Shown: piece after piece, positions 11,332-20,252 of the stretch | Position numbering within the stretch: the first letter of the stretch is position 1 | Layout: every line of letters starts with the position of its first letter | Source: Paenibacillaceae bacterium | GTDB lineage: Bacteria; Bacillota; Clostridia; Lachnospirales; Lachnospiraceae | Direction: 5' to 3' | NCBI GenBank assembly: GCA_015057715.1 | Contig: SVDS01000030.1 | Coordinates: forward strand, 1 to 40,038 | DNA: 40,038 nucleotides | Made by a program: the position numbers and the translations under genes | Notes under the pieces: generated by a model | The model's input: the letters and a program-made list of their open reading frames with translations, nothing else | What the model was told of the DNA's origin: nothing | Databases searched by the model: none

Positions 11332-13056
11332 TTATTCAAATGAAATCGCAATCATCTCATCTGTTGATGTAAGCGGTCTTCCTGTTGCTGTGGTTCGCCC
11401 TTGTTCCGAAAATAAATATAAATTTTTCTTTGCTCGTGAACAAACAACGTATAGCAATTTTTTAGTTTCATCTTCTCGATATTGTTGTGATTTCCGAATT
11501 ATTGTATCCCAGTGCGGAATATATCCATTTAGAATACCAAACGCTATAACGGTATCGTACTCTTCACCTTTCACACCATGAAATGTATTTATTACCACAC
11601 CTTCTTTTTCTTTGAAGCATTGTTTAAAAGTATCAATACTCGTAGATAAATCATACCGCTGTACTCTATCATTAATTTTTGCAATAAAATCTTCATATGA
11701 TTTTTGTAAAAATTGCTCCTGACTCAAATTAACACCCAAAATATGAAAGAACTTAATAATCGACCTTTGAAGATAATCCAAGCCGTTTTCTTCTTCGCAT
11801 AATAAAGAATTAACTACTTTCAAAATCATATATGTATCTACTTTTTCGTGTAGTTCTATTTTATACTCTTCCGATAAAATCTTAACTATTTCATTTGCAA
11901 TTTGTTTTCTAAGCCACGACTTTTTTCCAGGTTCAGTAAATAATAGCCTTGCAAATTGAAAAAATACATTCATAGGATCATACTTTATTGGAGTAATATC
12001 TGGTGCATCAAATTTTACCTCAGGTAAAAGTGTCTTCATTTGTTTTGATAATGGAAATAGTAACCACCATTGTGGGGCAATAATACATATTTCATTCTCT
12101 GGAATCCCATCAGATATCTGTTTTTTTACAATTTTGGCTATTTCTTCAAATAAATCTGATTTAATAATTGTATTATTATAAACTAAGCACCCCATTTCAT
12201 CTTTAATTTCGGATACCGCATATATCGGAACAGCCTTCAGCTGAAAATTAGAATAACAATTAATTATGCGCTGTGTTGTGCGATAACAACCATCTAATTT
12301 TTCTTCTTTAAAAGCAACCCCAAATTCTAATTGTAATTCTTCGGATGTTTTTGCAATACCACCAAGAGCACCGTAGATAGCTTGATCTGTGTCTCCTACA
12401 AAAGTTAATAATATTTTTTTATTAGCCGCTACTATACAGCCCAATATACCATACTGCAATTCATTCGTATCTTGATACTCGTCAACTAAAATTGATCTTG
12501 TAATGCCGCCAATATTCTCAGCAATAAATGAATAGGTCGTAACTAAATCAAAGGATATTTTCAATATATCATTAAAATCAATCTCTTTCTCAGCTAATAA
12601 CTTTTCTTCATACTTCTTCACAATTTCCGGAAAATCAAATGGTTTATTATAACCAATGTCTATACCAAGAGTCTTAACAATTTCATCTACATATTGGCTT
12701 TGTACATACTCATCAATAATATGATATCCTTTTTTTAATCGATTATGGTACATTGTATACGGTCTGATAATAAATTCGAGGCAAAACTGATGTATTGTCC
12801 CTACCCACACTTTATCTTCCGGAATATCCATTTTCTCCAGTCGCTCTCTGATTTCATCAGCAGCTCTATTTGTGTATGTAATTGCAATATTTATTTTTTT
12901 TGAAAGCTCGTATTTTTTTACTATATATGCTAGCTTATAAGTTAAGGTTCTTGTTTTACCACTTCCTGGACAAGCCTTAAGCAAAATGTTACTACCTTCA
13001 ATACATACCTTTTTCTGTTGTGGATTCAATTGCTCTAAAAAAAGCAGATCTTCCAT
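11332..13056 (-). CDS. gajB: GajB-like UvrD/Rep-family helicase (Gabija-type system)
   Basis: A 574-residue superfamily-1 helicase. Walker A 'ACPGSGKTRTL' is at residues 28-38, motif Ia 'AITYTNRAADEI' near 58-69, Walker B 'DEYQDTN' at 192-198, motif III 'GDTDQAIYGA' at 221-230. Late motifs are 'INTFHGVKGEEYDTV' and 'LLYVVCSRAKKNLYLF'. Its ATG overlaps the stop of the upstream OLD-like nuclease gene by one base (TAATG), so the two are translationally coupled. Order and pairing match Gabija, in which GajA cuts DNA and GajB assists; the known GajB is a little shorter. The assignment rests on architecture, not on a similarity search. Confidence 0.82.
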   Translation of the reverse strand: MEDLLFLEQLNPQQKKVCIEGSNILLKACPGSGKTRTLTYKLAYIVKKYELSKKINIAITYTNRAADEIRERLEKMDIPEDKVWVGTIHQFCLEFIIRPYTMYHNRLKKGYHIIDEYVQSQYVDEIVKTLGIDIGYNKPFDFPEIVKKYEEKLLAEKEIDFNDILKISFDLVTTYSFIAENIGGITRSILVDEYQDTNELQYGILGCIVAANKKILLTFVGDTDQAIYGALGGIAKTSEELQLEFGVAFKEEKLDGCYRTTQRIINCYSNFQLKAVPIYAVSEIKDEMGCLVYNNTIIKSDLFEEIAKIVKKQISDGIPENEICIIAPQWWLLFPLSKQMKTLLPEVKFDAPDITPIKYDPMNVFFQFARLLFTEPGKKSWLRKQIANEIVKILSEEYKIELHEKVDTYMILKVVNSLLCEEENGLDYLQRSIIKFFHILGVNLSQEQFLQKSYEDFIAKINDRVQRYDLSTSIDTFKQCFKEKEGVVINTFHGVKGEEYDTVIAFGILNGYIPHWDTIIRKSQQYREDETKKLLYVVCSRAKKNLYLFSEQGRTTATGRPLTSTDEMIAISFE

Positions 13057-15221
13057 TATTCACACCAGCTTTCACAATATTTATCAACCTCAATTAATAA
13101 TTTTGATACAACATCGTTTTCATAGGCCTCTCTAAAATTCTGAATACAACATTTTTTATTTGTAATATCTGTTGCCATCTGAACTTTTTCTTTGAATTCA
13201 ATAATATCATCAGTTTCCTTATATTCACTTATTGAATATTCCACCATCTTAAAAATAATATCTACATTTATTATTTCTCTACTTGCAAATGCAACAGCTT
13301 CTAATATATATTGTGGTATACAAACCGCACTATCAATATAATTTGATAGAATTGTTGCATACCAACCTTTTCCCATATCTCTTGCCAGTGTTAAAACCGC
13401 ATTAGCGCACTCTCCTGAAGAACCGCTTAATAGCTTTTCCTTATGTCCACTTATTGTTTTTTTATCAACATAATTGACTCCAAGAACTTGTTCTATATAA
13501 CTACAGTTGGCTCTTTTTTCTGCAAAAGCAAAATCGATTTCTAGCGTATGAGGAGCATAGAAAGACTTTACCCATATATTTCCGTCATATAGCGTTTCTA
13601 GCTTGTCTTTTCTACTTGCTCCTCTTGTTTGTGCTTCCATCTTATAAAAACTACTGGTACTTTCTACTATTTGAACATCTTCATCAGTAACAATTGCGCA
13701 TGACCTATTTATTCTTATATCTGCAAATAGACTCGCAATATATTCAAAGGAGACACTTCCTACATTTATGAGTCCAATTCCAAGCTCATCCAAAGAAACT
13801 CCGAATGCACTCTTTACAATATTAGGAATTAAAATTTCTTCTCCATCTCCTTCTACTAAAATAACCCCTTTTGAAAAGAGCAATACTGTGCGCTTTGCAT
13901 CCAGATAGCGTTCAATGCAATTTGATAATGTTAAGTTCTTTAGGTTAAGAAATTCTTCACCAAACTCGTCCAGCCCCTTATTTGGTTGCATTGAAATACT
14001 TTTATTATCCAAAGATTTCAAAATATTTATATTTTTAATATCCGAAACTTCAGCCAAATGTGTTGAATGGGTAGTAGTTATTATCTGGGTATAGTCCTTT
14101 GTAACTTTCAACTTATCAAACAAAGTTCTTTGAATATGTGTATGAATGTGCGCCTCTGGCTCCTCAATAATCATAATGTTTATAAGCTCTCTAGTCCTAT
14201 TGATTTCATATTCAACTATTTTCAAAGCCATATAAATCATATTTAGGTGTCCTAACCCTAAAGATTCTATATCATTCTGTTTTGATGGTTTTAAAAATAA
14301 ATATCGCGATAATGATTTTAAATCATCCTTCATCCCAGATTCTAAAATGATTTCTGGAGAATACACCATTCCTATCATATCCAATAATTTCTCATTGATT
14401 TTCTTACCAACAAGTTCTACTTGCTCGACCTCAGATATGGATTTGTTCAAATTCATAATTTCGTCTTTAATTGAGCTGATTTCTGATTCTTTTATCAATG
14501 ATTCTACTGATTCAATAATTCTTCTGATTGGGTTTTTAGGCTTGTTTAATTCACTTTCTACATCTCGTAAAGCATCAATAAATACCACTGATATATGATC
14601 CTGTACATCCGCTATATTTAATTTACATCCTAAAATTTCATCATTATCTTCGTCAGGATTTGTACATTGTCCGTTATCTAAATCTCCAACAATTTTTTTG
14701 TATATTGTTTCATTTATAAAATCCGTTTGTGCTCGACTTGTAAAATAAAATTCATAATCTGCAATTCTTATTTTATTCCGCTCTTTTTCAAATTCTATCG
14801 GATCGGTAATTTCACTTAATTTTTTTCTTATTTGTTTTTGTGGACGAATAAAAAGAGAAATTACACCAATATTGTCTTTTCCACTTTTTATATAGGATTT
14901 CAGAAAATCCTCATTTTCATCATCAGGCACTAGTTCTGCACATATCTCCGTTTGTTTATCTACAGATGTAATATTTCCAAATACTGCCGAAAGAATTATC
15001 CAATGTCCTTTCCAATTATTCAAAGTATCCGAAAAGTCATTATCCTTAAGTCTTTTTGTGTTATAGTAGTATGAATCATCCAACAATATGCGAAGAGCTG
15101 CCATTGCATTTGATTTTCCAGAATCATTCTCCCCAATAATTGTGTTTACTCCTTCAACAAAAGAAAAATGTGTAGCTCTTAAATTTTTGTAATTTACAAC
15201 TTGCAAATGATTTAAATACAT
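13056..15221 (-). CDS. gajA: GajA-like OLD-family ATPase/TOPRIM nuclease (Gabija-type system)
   Basis: A 721-residue protein. The ABC-type ATPase part has Walker A 'GENDSGKS' (residues 30-37), signature 'LGLGHLNMIY' (321-330), Walker B 'IMIIEEPEAH' (349-358) and switch 'TTTHSTHLAE' (382-391). The TOPRIM nuclease part has the catalytic 'VEGDGEE' (456-462) and 'VTDED' (511-515), followed by a long C-terminal region. The start ATG at 15221 has an AAGGGGTGA site lying inside the end of an RloB-like relic frame, whose stop is 2 bp upstream. Coupling to a UvrD-like helicase makes Gabija the best call; a class 2 OLD nuclease with a helicase partner is the same thing in other words. The length is above that of the best-known GajA. 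Confidence 0.83.
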   Translation of the reverse strand: MYLNHLQVVNYKNLRATHFSFVEGVNTIIGENDSGKSNAMAALRILLDDSYYYNTKRLKDNDFSDTLNNWKGHWIILSAVFGNITSVDKQTEICAELVPDDENEDFLKSYIKSGKDNIGVISLFIRPQKQIRKKLSEITDPIEFEKERNKIRIADYEFYFTSRAQTDFINETIYKKIVGDLDNGQCTNPDEDNDEILGCKLNIADVQDHISVVFIDALRDVESELNKPKNPIRRIIESVESLIKESEISSIKDEIMNLNKSISEVEQVELVGKKINEKLLDMIGMVYSPEIILESGMKDDLKSLSRYLFLKPSKQNDIESLGLGHLNMIYMALKIVEYEINRTRELINIMIIEEPEAHIHTHIQRTLFDKLKVTKDYTQIITTTHSTHLAEVSDIKNINILKSLDNKSISMQPNKGLDEFGEEFLNLKNLTLSNCIERYLDAKRTVLLFSKGVILVEGDGEEILIPNIVKSAFGVSLDELGIGLINVGSVSFEYIASLFADIRINRSCAIVTDEDVQIVESTSSFYKMEAQTRGASRKDKLETLYDGNIWVKSFYAPHTLEIDFAFAEKRANCSYIEQVLGVNYVDKKTISGHKEKLLSGSSGECANAVLTLARDMGKGWYATILSNYIDSAVCIPQYILEAVAFASREIINVDIIFKMVEYSISEYKETDDIIEFKEKVQMATDITNKKCCIQNFREAYENDVVSKLLIEVDKYCESWCE

Positions 15222-15225
15222 ATAT

Positions 15226-15570
15226 TCACCCCTTATTCACTTTAGTTTTTATCTCCCCCACCAGCTCATGCACCGTTGTACACGGCCACATCTCCGATGG
15301 TTTTACTTTTCCATCCCTTATACACTGATCAAGTTTTTGTTGTGCAACTCTAATTGCCTTTTCTTCATCACCGCTCTTGCAAATTCTAGGGTACATGTCG
15401 CTATCAGCTTTGGAATACTTTTGTCCTGTCCTATTTTCATACACTTTCCCGAATTCAGAACAACACGTCCATGATTCACGCAATGCAAGCATGGAACCAA
15501 AGTAGGCGTACAACCATATTTCAAAACATGGATTCGACCAGCCTACTCCGATTCCTTTTTCTTTTGCTTA
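15226..15570 (-). pseudogene. RloB-like protein, C-terminal remnant
   Basis: The frame, open from about 15570, reads 'GIGVGWSNPCFEIWLYAYFG' and then to 'VNKG' at 15226. The 'SNPCFE.W' motif followed by a Cys/Lys-rich helix-forming tail resembles the end of RloB proteins, which are found in type I restriction loci. The N-terminal two thirds are absent; a stop codon precedes the fragment and the frame is joined to an HsdR-like start in another frame. The family name is from motif recognition and moderately sure. The fragment ends directly before gajA, so an intact rloB may once have headed that operon. Confidence 0.5.
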
Positions 15571-15661
15571 CTTTATTTTTAGACTGCACTTGCCATCCAG
15601 CTTGTATCAACATCGCATCTATTTCATCACGAGCAATCTGCTCTGGATTTTGATTTATCAT
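15521..15661 (-). pseudogene. HsdR-like N-terminal remnant
   Basis: A 46-codon frame starting at the ATG at 15661 after a GGGGGT site. Its first part, 'INQNPEQIARDEIDAMLIQA' and 'GWQVQSKNK', resembles the conserved start of type I restriction R subunits or similar DEAD-type restriction helicases. The match ends near 15570, after which the frame runs into the RloB-like fragment read in the wrong frame and stops. A deletion joining two genes of an ancestral restriction locus explains this. Confidence 0.5.
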
Positions 15662-15767
15662 CTTTTTTTACCCCCATTCTTAGAAAACAATAGTTGTGAT
15701 AAATATTTCATATATCTCACACAGTATGTCTTCGAAAATATATTTGTGGTACTAAAACATTCCTAAA

Positions 15768-16781
15768 CTACTTAATATCACCATTTTGAATAATCCAATT
15801 TACAATATCAATAAAACCACTTTCATTGAGTTTCTGAAAGCTTTTTCCATTTTCATCAGATAAAAACTGTAAAAATTCTCCCATTTCCTTTCTGTATATC
15901 TGCCCTATTATCTGAAGTTCTTTAGCAGCCTCACAAGTCGCTTCATAATCTCCGATTTTATTCATTTTTTCATTTAGACTATCATATCTATCTTTCCAAA
16001 AGCCTATGTAATCTAGACTTACTTGTGCTCCCTTATAGATATCTGCTCCTATCTTTTCCGGAGCATCTTTTCCATAATATTTTCTTTCATTTTCACTTAA
16101 TACAATAAACAAAAGCTTGTCCCTATAGTGGTGATCTTTTAATGTCTCACCAACTTCATACATACATGCTTGTCTCTTTAGATATGTATCGCTTACTACT
16201 GTTAATACAAAATCATGTTCCTGCAACGTATCCATAAATGCCTTAAAACTGTCTTTGTACCTCAAGTCAGTATAACGTGAGACTTTGATTTTATCCTTCA
16301 ATTTCTCAAGCATTATTTTTTCAATAATATCCACAATTGGGGTATCACACTCTGTGTATGAAATAAACAAAGTTGAAGGGTCGCTAAGTATCTTATTATC
16401 AACTACCTCTACTCCATTATTCTTATAATAATAATACCTACCATCAGTTAATACTTTTTTTTCAGATTTTTCAACTTTGATAACAAAAATACTTCTTCCT
16501 TCTACATTAATATATTTATTTGAGCTAATGATCTCTCCTATCAACTTTTTATATGCTGATTCCATAACGCTATTCATATCAAATGCCAATTGGAATTCTA
16601 ATGGTTTCAATACTCCATTATCTTTTTCAACTCCAATAAGGATATAACCGCCTTCTTTATTAGCTAATCCACATATGTACTTTGCCAATTCCCCAGGTCG
16701 TGACTCTAATGATCTACATATTAAATTATCTAACTTGTTACAACTTATAATATCCAGTACTTCTTTTTGATTTAGTTCCAT
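15768..16781 (-). CDS. AlbA_2 (Schlafen-type) plus TIR domain protein
   Basis: A 337-residue protein. Residues about 10-125 form an AlbA_2/divergent AAA-4-type domain ('LESRPGELAKYICGLANKEG' then 'GYILIGVEKDNG'). Residues about 138-270 look like a TIR domain: first strand 'LFISYTECDT', then 'FKAFMDTLQEHDFVLTVVSD' and 'TYLKRQACMYEVGE', in which Glu209 sits at the position of the catalytic glutamate of NAD-cleaving TIRs. A helical tail follows. Its ATG overlaps the end of the upstream GHKL ATPase by 10 bp, so the two are co-translated. TIR effectors in bacteria deplete NAD or make cyclic ADP-ribose signals on phage infection; this is the inferred role. Confidence 0.78.
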   Translation of the reverse strand: MELNQKEVLDIISCNKLDNLICRSLESRPGELAKYICGLANKEGGYILIGVEKDNGVLKPLEFQLAFDMNSVMESAYKKLIGEIISSNKYINVEGRSIFVIKVEKSEKKVLTDGRYYYYKNNGVEVVDNKILSDPSTLFISYTECDTPIVDIIEKIMLEKLKDKIKVSRYTDLRYKDSFKAFMDTLQEHDFVLTVVSDTYLKRQACMYEVGETLKDHHYRDKLLFIVLSENERKYYGKDAPEKIGADIYKGAQVSLDYIGFWKDRYDSLNEKMNKIGDYEATCEAAKELQIIGQIYRKEMGEFLQFLSDENGKSFQKLNESGFIDIVNWIIQNGDIK

Positions 16782-19700
16782 TCCGTTTTCATTCCTTTCA
16801 ATGGTATCCTATTAAGTCTAGTCAACTTAATAATTTTTCCAAAGGTAAGTTTCTGCGGTTCACTCTGCCCATCTTCTACCCACAATTCCCAATCCATAGT
16901 ATAATCAAGAATATCCTTTTCGGTACTGTAATGAATACGCACTTCACCACCATCAGATGGTCTTGCGAGTAGATATATTTCTTTTCCATCTTTCTTAATT
17001 ACAAATATCGTGTTAATTGCAAATGTAGAATTAACTAATGGTTGTATATTTGAAAGATCATATTCCTCTCTCTTTTCTAGATATGCAAGAATTCTATTTT
17101 TTGACCTATCAAGTATAGACTTTACATATTCAAATGACTTTACTTTATGTTTTGATGGTCTTATAAATTGACTTGCAAACTCAGTGTTATTAAAAGCAGT
17201 TTCTAATGCCTCCTCCGAGTCAATTCCATACTGTAAGAGTATATCCTCTGTAACCTCAATTTTTTCATCAGCATCCGTTCTCTCTTCCACTTGACTTTTA
17301 CGGATGATTTCCTCTAGTTTTTCCGGACTTGAGATATCATATTTCTCCATGATATTATTAAATGTCTCAGCCTGCTTTATATTTAGAGCAATTTCTTCAT
17401 CATCATATAAATAATGTTTATTTCTATAAAGCTCTGGAAAAATATCTTTTGCCTTTTCCTCATGGTCACATAACCATATTAATAACTTTTTAAAATTGTT
17501 CCTTACCTCGATTTCTTTTGAGGTTCTATTTTTGTTTACATATTGTGTGATGACCTGAGATACATCACTATCCTTTTTCTGTCTGCTTTCTGGCAATTCC
17601 AAATAAATATTACTTATCAACAAGTCTGCTTTAATATCATATCCTGCGCTAACTGCTAAATCTTTTAATGTTTCATCCATCTCTGAATCAAGGAAGATAT
17701 CATCTTTTATCATGAATTTTCCATTCTGATTTGGAAGAATAGGCTTCGTTGATTTATTAAGAAGATTGTCATATTCTTGTTTTACTGCAAATTCAACAAA
17801 TTCTGTAAGTAATTCTATTGCATCATTATTCGTTATATCCATGTATTGAGCGAACTTATCAATATCTCCAAATTCACTAATTTTGTCTGCCACATTGGTC
17901 ATTGCATATTTTAAAGCATCTTGTAATAATTTTTCCGAAATCACAGATACCTCTCTCATTTTATTATCAGTCTTAAGTATATCATTTGCATATTTACAAA
18001 TTTTTTTCTGTACAGCAATATCTTCATAATCATTTTGATACATATAAAGCAACTGCAATAGAATATCCGTCTTTTGTTGCCTTGTAGCATCTTCCAGATT
18101 TCCTTCAATAAGTTTTAGAATCTGAACGTTATCATATTCTTTAAATTGAAACCAATCTCTGTTGTTTAAATTTAAACTAAGAAGCCAATTTCTACAGTCA
18201 TCACCTAGGATATTTAACATATCTTTATATTGTTCTAAAATTCCTTTATCAAAATGTAATTCTGTAATTCCAGAAAATATGTCACTCTGATTTGGTATTA
18301 CTTTAATATTGTTAGAAAATAAATATGTCTGCATGGTTTTACTTTCACTTATCAGATCATAATACTGGGATAACCATGTTGTCCATTCAACTTTAAGTAA
18401 ATTTTTCTGTAAATTTTCTACATCTCCATATTCTTGCACTTGCTTTGTCAATGTTCTGAAATTATATCTATTGCAATCATGCCATAACGATTGATACCAG
18501 TTGTTAATATCCTCCTTACATGGAATATACTCTGGTATTAAATCATATAGCAAATTCCATAATTTTTCTCGCGTTACTTCATCTCGATCTGAGATAATAA
18601 ATACCTGCTCATTATCAAAACAATCATACAATTCCATCATTGAACTACTGCTCGTGCGTATAATCGGAGTATGAAGAATAATATTTTTGCATTTTTTTAC
18701 AATTTCCTCTTCCCACTCCCCATCGTACCATTTCTTTTTCACATATGGACTAATACATGTTATATTATAGATTCCATCCCATTCTTTATTTGCCACATAT
18801 TCTAATAATTTCTCATACAATTCGCATGCTTTCTCAATAATAATACGATTTTGCTCAATTTCATTGTCAATCTTTATCTTAGATTTGCACGTAAGGAAAA
18901 TACCATCTCTCGGCTCTGTCGGATTAAAATCACTTGAACATACTAGAACTGGGAAAGGAAAATCTTCTGTACCGATCAATGGGAAATCGCAAAAAAGTTT
19001 TGATTGTTCTTTTGCAAATGGTAAAATTTTCATCTTATCTTCATGGCGCTCCAAGGCAATTGATATTGTGGTACTGTCCTCCGTCTGATTCAAAACAAAA
19101 ATACTCTTTTTATCATTTTCGGTTTCATAAATAATTTCATGAATAAATGCATTTTCCAACTCACATTTATATTTTTTGTTATATCTATAGGTCTCTCCTG
19201 TAGTAGTGAGTGTAATTTCTTCTATATCTCTTAACATGGATAAAACATATGGTGCTGATACCCTTAAGTTTTCTATTCCCTGTTGCGCCACTTCAATTCC
19301 ACTCTCATCCAGTTCATACTCAAAAATAGTATTATACCCATCAATCTCCAACTCATCATCAAATATTGATTGACATTCATGTAGTTGTTCCACTGATTTT
19401 TCCAATGCTGTAATAACTTCATTTCTCTCATGACCAGTTCTGTCCAAAGTAATACAAAACTTTGAGTATTTGTCCTCTTCAATTTCCAAAATCCCAGAAA
19501 TATTAACGATTTCAGATAACAAATGTGTTGTAATAAAGCCTGTCCCGAACTTTCCACTTTTTCTTCCATTTTCATCATTTCTGTCCTTAGAAGATGATTG
19601 ATTAATGAGAGACATCACATTTGTCATAGAAAAAGCTTTACCATTATGCCTAAATAATACACTTCTATTTTCTTCATTGAAGTCAATTTTGATTTTCACT

Positions 19701-19885
19701 TTACCTGTATCACCACATACATCCTTTGCATTTTGGCACAATTCCCATATCCATCGTTTAGCACTATTTTCATTATTACTATAACGAAGTTTCTGTAGTA
19801 ATTGGACAATACGATTGGCTGCACCTGCTCTTAATGTATTATTATCCGCTTCCTCTATACTTCTTTGTAATAGTTCTCTGTTCAT
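16772..19885 (-). CDS. Large sacsin/Hsp90-type GHKL ATPase
   Basis: A 1037-residue protein. The N-terminal ATP-binding fold shows the GHKL motifs: N box 'WIWELCQNAKDVC' (about 44-56), G1 'FRHNGKAFSMTNVMSLINQS' and G2 'GKFGTGFITTHLLSE'. This fits sacsin-like HATPase_c domains found in bacterial conflict systems. The remaining 700 or so residues are helical and acidic and match nothing I can name; the last part ('LLARPSDGGEVRIHYSTEKD') looks like a small beta domain. The start is the ATG at 19885, with GGGAGG just upstream, in place of the in-frame ATG at 19897 inside that site. It lies between an XRE regulator and a TIR gene in one operon. Role inferred: sensor or regulator of the TIR effector. 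Confidence 0.78.
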   Translation of the reverse strand: MNRELLQRSIEEADNNTLRAGAANRIVQLLQKLRYSNNENSAKRWIWELCQNAKDVCGDTGKVKIKIDFNEENRSVLFRHNGKAFSMTNVMSLINQSSSKDRNDENGRKSGKFGTGFITTHLLSEIVNISGILEIEEDKYSKFCITLDRTGHERNEVITALEKSVEQLHECQSIFDDELEIDGYNTIFEYELDESGIEVAQQGIENLRVSAPYVLSMLRDIEEITLTTTGETYRYNKKYKCELENAFIHEIIYETENDKKSIFVLNQTEDSTTISIALERHEDKMKILPFAKEQSKLFCDFPLIGTEDFPFPVLVCSSDFNPTEPRDGIFLTCKSKIKIDNEIEQNRIIIEKACELYEKLLEYVANKEWDGIYNITCISPYVKKKWYDGEWEEEIVKKCKNIILHTPIIRTSSSSMMELYDCFDNEQVFIISDRDEVTREKLWNLLYDLIPEYIPCKEDINNWYQSLWHDCNRYNFRTLTKQVQEYGDVENLQKNLLKVEWTTWLSQYYDLISESKTMQTYLFSNNIKVIPNQSDIFSGITELHFDKGILEQYKDMLNILGDDCRNWLLSLNLNNRDWFQFKEYDNVQILKLIEGNLEDATRQQKTDILLQLLYMYQNDYEDIAVQKKICKYANDILKTDNKMREVSVISEKLLQDALKYAMTNVADKISEFGDIDKFAQYMDITNNDAIELLTEFVEFAVKQEYDNLLNKSTKPILPNQNGKFMIKDDIFLDSEMDETLKDLAVSAGYDIKADLLISNIYLELPESRQKKDSDVSQVITQYVNKNRTSKEIEVRNNFKKLLIWLCDHEEKAKDIFPELYRNKHYLYDDEEIALNIKQAETFNNIMEKYDISSPEKLEEIIRKSQVEERTDADEKIEVTEDILLQYGIDSEEALETAFNNTEFASQFIRPSKHKVKSFEYVKSILDRSKNRILAYLEKREEYDLSNIQPLVNSTFAINTIFVIKKDGKEIYLLARPSDGGEVRIHYSTEKDILDYTMDWELWVEDGQSEPQKLTFGKIIKLTRLNRIPLKGMKTEWN

Positions 19886-19910
19886 CTGTCCTCCCATACG
19901 CCCATGCTCT

Positions 19911-19953
19911 CATGTAAAAACAAATCGAAGTAAACATTGAAATTGTTTACATG
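19911..19953. promoter_or_regulatory. Nested inverted repeats upstream of the GHKL ATPase gene
   Basis: CATGTAAA (19911-19918) pairs with TTTACATG (19946-19953), and GTAAAC (19930-19935) pairs with GTTTAC (19945-19950). These GTAAA half-sites lie between the XRE gene and the ATPase start and fit an operator for the adjacent XRE protein. No clear -35/-10 pair was found next to them. Confidence 0.45.
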
Positions 19954-20012
19954 AATTTTATTCTTCTGCTTCCCTTTAGAAAATAAATTTTGTAGTTATC
20001 ATAAGAAAATAT

Positions 20013-20252
20013 CTATCTATTTGTTGTTATTATATTTGTATCAACTATTTGGACAATATCATCAAATCCGCACCCTAATTCCAAACATATCCTTGCCAGT
20101 ATATCTAAAGATACCTGCTCATTGTTTGACATTTTTGTAAATGTACTTGGCGCAATTTGAGTTTTCTTCCTTAAATCAACCTTAGTCATGTCTCTTTCGA
20201 GCAATAATCTCCACAGCGGTTTGTAACTGATTTTTATTTGTTTTTCTGACAT
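20013..20252 (-). CDS. XRE/Cro-type transcriptional regulator
   Basis: A 79-residue helix-turn-helix protein ('MTKVDLRKKTQIAPSTFTKM', then 'VSLDILARICLELGCGFDDI'), close in form to the YozG/DUF739-like group of small Cro regulators. A GGAGGAAAATAA site precedes the ATG. It is the first gene of the operon with the GHKL ATPase and the AlbA-TIR protein, from which it is separated by 127 bp holding operator-like repeats. It probably represses the system, as small XRE proteins do for many defence and toxin loci. Confidence 0.85.
   Translation of the reverse strand: MSEKQIKISYKPLWRLLLERDMTKVDLRKKTQIAPSTFTKMSNNEQVSLDILARICLELGCGFDDIVQIVDTNIITTNR

What the first reader, a model, noticed from the sequence alone, without database searches (positions are those of the whole stretch)
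15768..20252. XRE regulator + sacsin-type GHKL ATPase + AlbA_2-TIR operon: candidate new anti-phage system
Seen: three minus-strand genes in order, XRE, a 1037-residue protein with GHKL motifs, and a 337-residue protein whose first half is AlbA_2-like and second half TIR-like; the last two overlap by 10 bp. Known: bacterial TIR domains cleave NAD or make signalling nucleotides, and GHKL ATPases act as conformational switches. Inferred: the ATPase senses infection and releases the TIR effector, while the XRE protein keeps expression low. I cannot match this set to a named system (not Thoeris or Gabija by architecture).
Basis: partly seen in the sequence, partly recalled or inferred. Interest (0 to 1): 0.82.

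Follow-up and report, generated by a model that had tools for sequence, protein, structure and literature searches.

The report
Tiamat-like ATPase with swappable TIR effector
Two overlapping genes look like a bacterial anti-virus alarm in which an Hsp90-like switch protein is paired with an interchangeable killer protein, which could explain how a little-understood bacterial immune family (Tiamat) carries out its attack.

Summary
The genes are real: XRE (20013-20252), a GHKL/Hsp90-like protein (16772-19897, 1041 aa from the first ATG, 1037 from the likelier start) and AlbA_2-TIR (15768-16781), the last two overlapping by 10 bp. The best PADLOC match of AlbA_2-TIR is only E 5e-4. The pairing is not accidental: in 11 of 15 TmtA loci whose downstream side is visible, an AlbA_2 protein follows on the same strand (-10 to +24 bp in the 10 measured). 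Its AlbA_2 half is constant while its other half changes: TIR_2 (8), CAP12-type TIR (1), HEPN-like (1, by motif), nuclease-like (1, by motif). Two partnerless TmtAs carry NOV_C in their own chain; two cyanobacterial plasmid TmtAs have neither, which is against a strict rule. The XRE gene has no homologue in 9 other paired loci. Best reading: an Hsp90-like sensor switch with plug-in effectors coupled through AlbA_2, a two-gene variant of Tiamat. I have no phage or NAD data; the TmtA-AlbA_2 contact is inferred.

The parts
16772..19897 (-). tmtA: GHKL/Hsp90-like (sacsin-type) ATPase, 1041 aa from the first ATG, 1037 aa from the likelier start at 19885
   Evidence: PADLOC TmtA PDLC03967 E 9.3e-133; NCBIfam P_loop_sacsin above cut-off; E52, N56, A57, D59, G115, G118-G120 and T190 invariant in 11 aligned TmtAs (that these are the GHKL motif positions is recalled); Foldseek top hits Hsp90
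15768..16781 (-). AlbA_2-TIR effector, 337 aa; overlaps tmtA by 10 bp
   Evidence: Pfam SLFN_AlbA_2 and TIR_2 above cut-off; AlphaFold mean pLDDT 86.8; structural hits to TIR domains and to 3lmm; E209 column Glu in 15 of 15 TIR rows
20013..20252 (-). XRE/Cro-type regulator, 79 aa; probably a local accessory, not a part of the conserved unit
   Evidence: HTH_26 E 9.5e-16; no phmmer homologue at E 0.01 among ORFs of 9 other paired loci
19910..19958 (.). nested inverted repeats between XRE and tmtA, candidate operator
   Evidence: arms of 15 nt (80%) and 9 nt (100%); weak, no shuffled control was run

Best explanation
A two-gene, Tiamat-type abortive-infection system. TmtA is an Hsp90-like ATP-driven clamp that acts as sensor and switch. 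The downstream protein is a plug-in effector: its AlbA_2 half docks it on TmtA (inferred) and its C-terminal half is the toxin, here a TIR with the expected catalytic Glu. On infection TmtA would change state or assemble, bring TIR domains together, and trigger NAD+ cleavage or synthesis of a signal, stopping the cell before phage is released. Relatives carry other putative toxins on the same AlbA_2 plug, and some TmtAs instead carry a NOV_C domain in their own chain. Shown by sequence or model: the pairing, the constant AlbA_2, the changing C-terminal half, the Hsp90-like and TIR folds. Inferred: docking, trigger, NAD chemistry, defence.
For: Adjacency: 11 of 15 TmtA loci with a visible downstream side are followed by an AlbA_2 protein on the same strand, with gaps of -10 to +24 bp in the 10 measured. 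AlbA_2 is uncommon: 19 matches in 7 paired genomes, 7 of them the ones beside TmtA, and in G022 and G127 the only one found. In the family search of 397 genomes the four full-length AlbA_2-TIR hits (E 1.7e-35 or better: G000, G022, G106, G127) all lie beside TmtA. Effector exchange: TIR_2, CAP12-PCTIR_TIR (E 5.3e-40), a half with an R-x4-H motif and a nuclease-like half. Cis alternative: NOV_C in the two family TmtAs without a partner, L060 and L061, and in none of 10 partnered TmtAs scanned. AlbA_2 and a HATPase_c_4 domain share one chain in L004:12341-13762. Gabija directly downstream.
Against: No contact, phage or NAD evidence. Two cyanobacterial plasmid TmtAs with the same type of C-terminus have neither an adjacent AlbA_2 gene nor NOV_C, so the partner is not universal. 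The HEPN-like and nuclease-like assignments rest on motifs read by eye; Pfam gave no hit above cut-off there. Only 15 informative loci; the paired ones come from the window's own class as the tools group it, two named genome contigs (L002, L003) and two viral contigs. The order of branches among divergent TmtAs is unresolved and a single origin of the TIR type is not ruled out, so exchange as against lineage sorting is not proven. AlbA_2 and TmtA identities correlate over all 45 pairs (r 0.95) but not among the 35 divergent pairs (r 0.01).
Confidence: 0.6

Rival explanations
1. Toxin-antitoxin-like arrangement: the TIR protein is active by default and TmtA, as a chaperone, holds it inactive; phage attack on TmtA frees the toxin.
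For: Hsp90-like fold; tight coupling of the genes; L004 keeps only a frameshifted AlbA_2-TIR and no TmtA match in the 17 kb held.
Against: L002 keeps an uninterrupted AlbA_2-TIR ORF (326 aa, about a dozen residues shorter at the end) beside a TmtA that lies in several frames, which a freely active toxin should not allow. Both are MAG contigs, so sequence errors are possible.
Confidence: 0.17
2. AlbA_2 is the sensor: it binds phage or damaged nucleic acid and triggers its own C-terminal toxin; TmtA is a helper that remodels the complex.
For: The Pfam family is Schlafen AlbA_2, and Schlafens act on nucleic acids (family knowledge). Solved Schlafen chains are matched by sequence only at chance level for the window protein (E 0.32 and above) and weakly for the G028 partner (E 0.048).
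Against: The acidic residues of the Schlafen RNase core (positions recalled, not from a call) are not seen in the window protein in the alignment, so cutting is unlikely; binding is not excluded. TmtA identity exceeds AlbA_2 identity in 43 of 45 pairs, a weak hint that TmtA is the more constrained part.
Confidence: 0.15
3. TmtA works alone, as in the single-gene Tiamat, and AlbA_2-TIR is an independent neighbour kept by defence-island clustering.
For: Two cyanobacterial TmtAs lack an adjacent AlbA_2 gene; the region is a defence island with Gabija.
Against: Immediate same-strand adjacency in 11 of 15 loci while the upstream genes differ between most loci, and AlbA_2 is uncommon in these genomes.
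Confidence: 0.08

Closest known systems
Tiamat (TmtA)
   Same: The ATPase is a clear TmtA homologue: PDLC03967 E 9.3e-133, two stretches, the best over residues 12-640.
   Different: Tiamat is, as I recall, described as a single gene (the founding paper is not held); here a second gene with AlbA_2 and a toxin-like domain is coupled to it and NOV_C is not found.
GHKL-Shedu, VcSduA (PMC12137116, passages read)
   Same: A GHKL ATPase that the authors propose controls a toxin domain.
   Different: In VcSduA the nuclease (DUF4263) is in the same chain; here the toxin is a separate, exchangeable protein, and DUF4263 is not among the Pfam hits.
Thoeris, CBASS/Pycsar and SPARTA TIR effectors
   Same: TIR domains as abortive-infection effectors; the G028 relative carries the CAP12/Pycsar type of TIR.
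   Different: No Thoeris, cyclase or Argonaute model was listed for the ten window proteins scanned (the GajA and GajB lists are capped at 25, other window genes were not scanned); the input module is an Hsp90-like ATPase.
Schlafen-HEPN fusions (PMC3710099, passages read)
   Same: That paper notes the Schlafen domain as an N-terminal partner of MAE_18760-type HEPN domains; the partner in L074 has a similar layout.
   Different: The passages that I read do not mention coupling to a GHKL ATPase gene or exchange with TIR.

Membership tests
Tiamat | TmtA homologue | tested here: met
   PADLOC PDLC03967 E 9.3e-133
Tiamat | single-gene system (recalled) | tested here: not met
   An AlbA_2-X gene follows in 11 of 15 loci; in 4 of 15 none does (for the neighbours scanned)
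Tiamat | protects against phage | not testable with these tools
   needs plaque assays
Gabija | GajA and GajB | tested here: not met
   The finding's genes are neither; a GajA-GajB pair lies beside it at 11332-15221
Thoeris | ThsB TIR with a ThsA partner | tested here: not met
   No ThsB or ThsA model listed at E 1 for the window's TIR protein or the other proteins scanned (GajA and GajB lists capped at 25). A relative's TIR (L037) matches ThsB weakly, E 0.00099
Shedu type with GHKL | DUF4263 nuclease domain | tested here: not met
   Not among the Pfam hits of the ATPase at E 1
TIR NADase effectors | TIR fold with catalytic Glu | tested here: met
   TIR_2 above cut-off, TIR structural hits, E209 column Glu in 15 of 15 TIR rows
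TIR NADase effectors | NAD cleavage | not testable with these tools
   needs an enzyme assay

The most novel reading that the evidence does not exclude
One clade of Tiamat is a modular immune platform: a constant Hsp90-like sensor (TmtA) and a constant AlbA_2 plug, onto which evolution mounts different toxins (TIR, CAP12-type TIR, HEPN-like RNase, nuclease), while other TmtAs keep a NOV_C domain in cis. AlbA_2 would then be a general adaptor that links GHKL ATPases to effectors.
Probability: 0.5. Interest if true: 0.74.

Novelty: new variant of a known kind. Interest (0 to 1): 0.64.

Why it matters
How Tiamat works was not explained in the passages on it that I read. The finding gives it a testable division of labour: an Hsp90-like switch and a plug-in toxin, with AlbA_2 as the coupling. 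It also suggests a role for the AlbA_2/Schlafen domain in bacteria, and a search rule (TmtA without NOV_C: look at the next gene) that a profile of TmtA alone does not apply.

Tried and rejected
Relatives of the AlbA_2-TIR protein in plasmids and phages: no match. TmtA in phages: no match; in plasmids: 3 records, the same 3 with a second query. The G028 partner in plasmids: 1151 records, none covering 80% of the query; the rows shown match its CAP12-TIR half. The L074 partner in plasmids: none. TmtA by PADLOC profile in 391 class genomes: 3; by alignment in 388 phylum genomes: the window's own only; in 22 genomes of G681's order: 1, itself; a second family draw gave no new genome (5 of 199, all known); two genera gave 1 of 8 and 1 of 61, both known. 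So the pair is sporadic. Eight viral-contig scans gave two TmtA contigs (L070, L071), the first found again as L072, and two contigs related to the G028 partner (L076, L077) that I did not examine. Weaker partial hits (for example G318 and G188, residues 26-207, E about 1e-5) were not examined. XRE as a core part: rejected (no HTH family in the upstream neighbours of L037 and L074 scanned). Mirror-tree correlation as proof of coupling: rejected, because it vanishes among divergent pairs. Effector exchange by tree: undecided. Structure search by VIA-align: library not available. Literature: the listings show no title or abstract start that describes a TmtA and AlbA_2-effector pair; one search was swamped by an unrelated test name (616 papers, 30 listed), and the library holds open-licence papers only.

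Dropped before counts: L069 (169-aa TmtA fragment on a Priestia plasmid), L059 and L062 (contig ends inside TmtA), L004 (no TmtA match). L002 is counted as paired although its TmtA is broken, but is not among the ten measured gaps.

Full report
What is there. The window is one whole contig (C283) of a 5.4-Mb genome in 283 contigs. On the minus strand lie XRE (20013-20252), a 1041-aa GHKL protein (16772-19897) and a 337-aa AlbA_2-TIR protein (15768-16781), the last two overlapping in ATGGAACTAA. Directly downstream is a Gabija pair, GajA 13056-15221 (E 3.5e-236) and GajB 11332-13056 (E 2.8e-204). G+C is 0.29-0.34 per kb in 11-21 kb and 0.40-0.49 to the right of it. In the one congener searched (G321), rlmD and the DEAD-box helicase are colinear with the window, but the 15 kb on the island side of rlmD have no blastn match in the window. 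Together this marks a variable defence island.

What the large protein is. PADLOC names it TmtA of Tiamat (PDLC03967, E 9.3e-133, best stretch 12-640 of 1041). NCBIfam gives the sacsin N-terminal ATP-binding domain above cut-off. In the 11-row alignment the residues expected for GHKL motifs (motif positions recalled) are invariant: E52, N56, A57, D59, G115, G118-G120, T190. The AlphaFold model (mean pLDDT 70.0, pTM 0.51, under 50 beyond residue 979 and in several loops) matches Hsp90s first (264 hits at E 0.001 or better).

What the partner is. SLFN_AlbA_2 and TIR_2 are both above cut-off. The model has mean pLDDT 86.8, pTM 0.59. Foldseek gives four hits at E 0.001 or better: first the C. diphtheriae protein DIP2311 (3lmm, which I recall as an AlbA_2-type protein), then TIR domains 3ozi (two chains) and 7xoz (target TM 0.54-0.61). 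The column of Glu209 is Glu in 15 of the 15 TIR-bearing rows of alignment A3. The best PADLOC match is PDC-S15 at E 5e-4.

The pair is conserved. A search of 397 family genomes found TmtA in 10 at E 1e-10. Six of these (G000, G022, G028, G106, G127, G273) have an AlbA_2 protein directly downstream; two (G047, G338) do not; two contigs end inside TmtA (G122, G136). Further loci: L003 and L002 from named genome contigs, viral contigs L070 and L071, G681 of another family, and two cyanobacterial plasmids. Of the 15 loci with a visible downstream side, 11 are paired. In the ten measured pairs the gap is -10 to +24 bp. For the four unpaired loci the neighbours that I scanned show no AlbA_2. AlbA_2 is uncommon: 19 matches in 7 paired genomes, and each of the 7 TmtA genes has one of them next to it; in G022 and G127 it is the only one found. 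The reverse holds for the TIR type: the four full-length AlbA_2-TIR hits in the family search all lie beside TmtA. The exception is L004 from another collection, a frameshifted AlbA_2-TIR with no TmtA match in the 17 kb held. The unit is sporadic: 1 of 8 and 1 of 61 genomes in two genera that hold it.

The effector half changes. Eight partners carry TIR_2 (seven by Pfam; L002 by alignment); two of these, L034 and L070, have a further GAF-like end whose Pfam models are below cut-off. G028's partner carries CAP12-PCTIR_TIR (136.6 bits against 24.7). G681's partner has a half with RHLYSH, an R-x4-H motif as in HEPN RNases, read by eye; Pfam shows there only a chance-level match (GCIP_C, E 0.15). 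G273's partner has a half with a D...EA pattern like PD-(D/E)xK nucleases, read by eye, with no Pfam match, a weak PADLOC match to LmuA (E 0.0015) and an AlbA_2 score just below cut-off (24.7 against 25.3) and just above (26.2).

Cis or trans. L060 and L061, the two family TmtAs without a partner, carry NOV_C at their C-terminus, above cut-off. None of the ten partnered TmtAs scanned shows NOV_C (L002 not scanned). NOV_C as a nuclease-like domain is recalled, not tested. The cyanobacterial TmtAs have the same type of C-terminus as the partnered ones but neither NOV_C nor an adjacent AlbA_2 gene: a result against a strict rule. On the tree the NOV_C pair separates with full support, the window's own TIR clade is well supported, and the divergent types are unresolved.

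Why AlbA_2 may be the plug. It is the only part shared by all 11 partners. It occurs in one chain with a HATPase_c_4 domain in L004:12341-13762, both above cut-off, so AlbA_2 together with a GHKL-type ATPase has a precedent. The acidic positions of the Schlafen RNase core (recalled) are not seen in the window protein, which argues for binding rather than cutting. Docking itself is inferred.

XRE. No phmmer homologue at E 0.01 was found among ORFs of the nine other paired loci or of six further loci; upstream sequence is short in some (about 380 bp in L074). Inverted repeats lie between XRE and tmtA (15 nt, 80%, and 9 nt, 100%) and just before the start of XRE (7 nt), so XRE may regulate this copy. 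Promoter-like sites are no more frequent than in shuffles (28 against 30.3, sd 4.8).

Literature. The founding Tiamat paper is not held; that Tiamat is single-gene is recalled. I read passages of PMC12629846, PMC10952713, PMC12409356, PMC12137116, PMC3710099 and PMC11811056. The nearest ideas in print that I saw are the GHKL-gated nuclease of VcSduA and Schlafen-HEPN fusions. The listings named under Tried and rejected show no such pair.

Verdict. A real, conserved two-gene unit, filed as a new variant of Tiamat: TmtA homology is met, the single-gene definition (recalled) is not, and function is untested.

Noticed in passing
   Followed up: partly
window 15226-15690: Gene remnants between Gabija and AlbA_2-TIR: a C-terminal RloB piece (Pfam E 1.1e-5, below cut-off) after a short frame that reads by eye like the start of a type I restriction HsdR.
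   Followed up: no
L036:6022-7646, L038:4583-6096, L039:6768-8272: A second recurring two-gene TIR unit: a small Cys-rich protein overlapping a gene for an unassigned N-terminal domain fused to a TIR related to the window's (31-37% identity). Zinc-ribbon models match the first gene of L036 only below cut-off.
   Followed up: partly
L071:5623-8304: On a viral contig the TmtA frame is fused to a phage-tail-like start in one ORF, with AlbA_2-TIR behind it: insertion into a prophage or an assembly error.
   Followed up: no
L034:2740-4920: A CD-NTase gene (SMODS, AGS_C) and a SMODS-associated NUDIX gene lie upstream of the TmtA pair.
   Followed up: no
L074:61-1074: A protein that reads by eye like a SIR2-type NADase lies near the TmtA and AlbA_2-HEPN-like pair; Pfam gave nothing above cut-off.
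   Followed up: no
L003:1491-2813 and L059:6098-7447: FRG-domain gene directly upstream of TmtA in two related loci.
   Followed up: no
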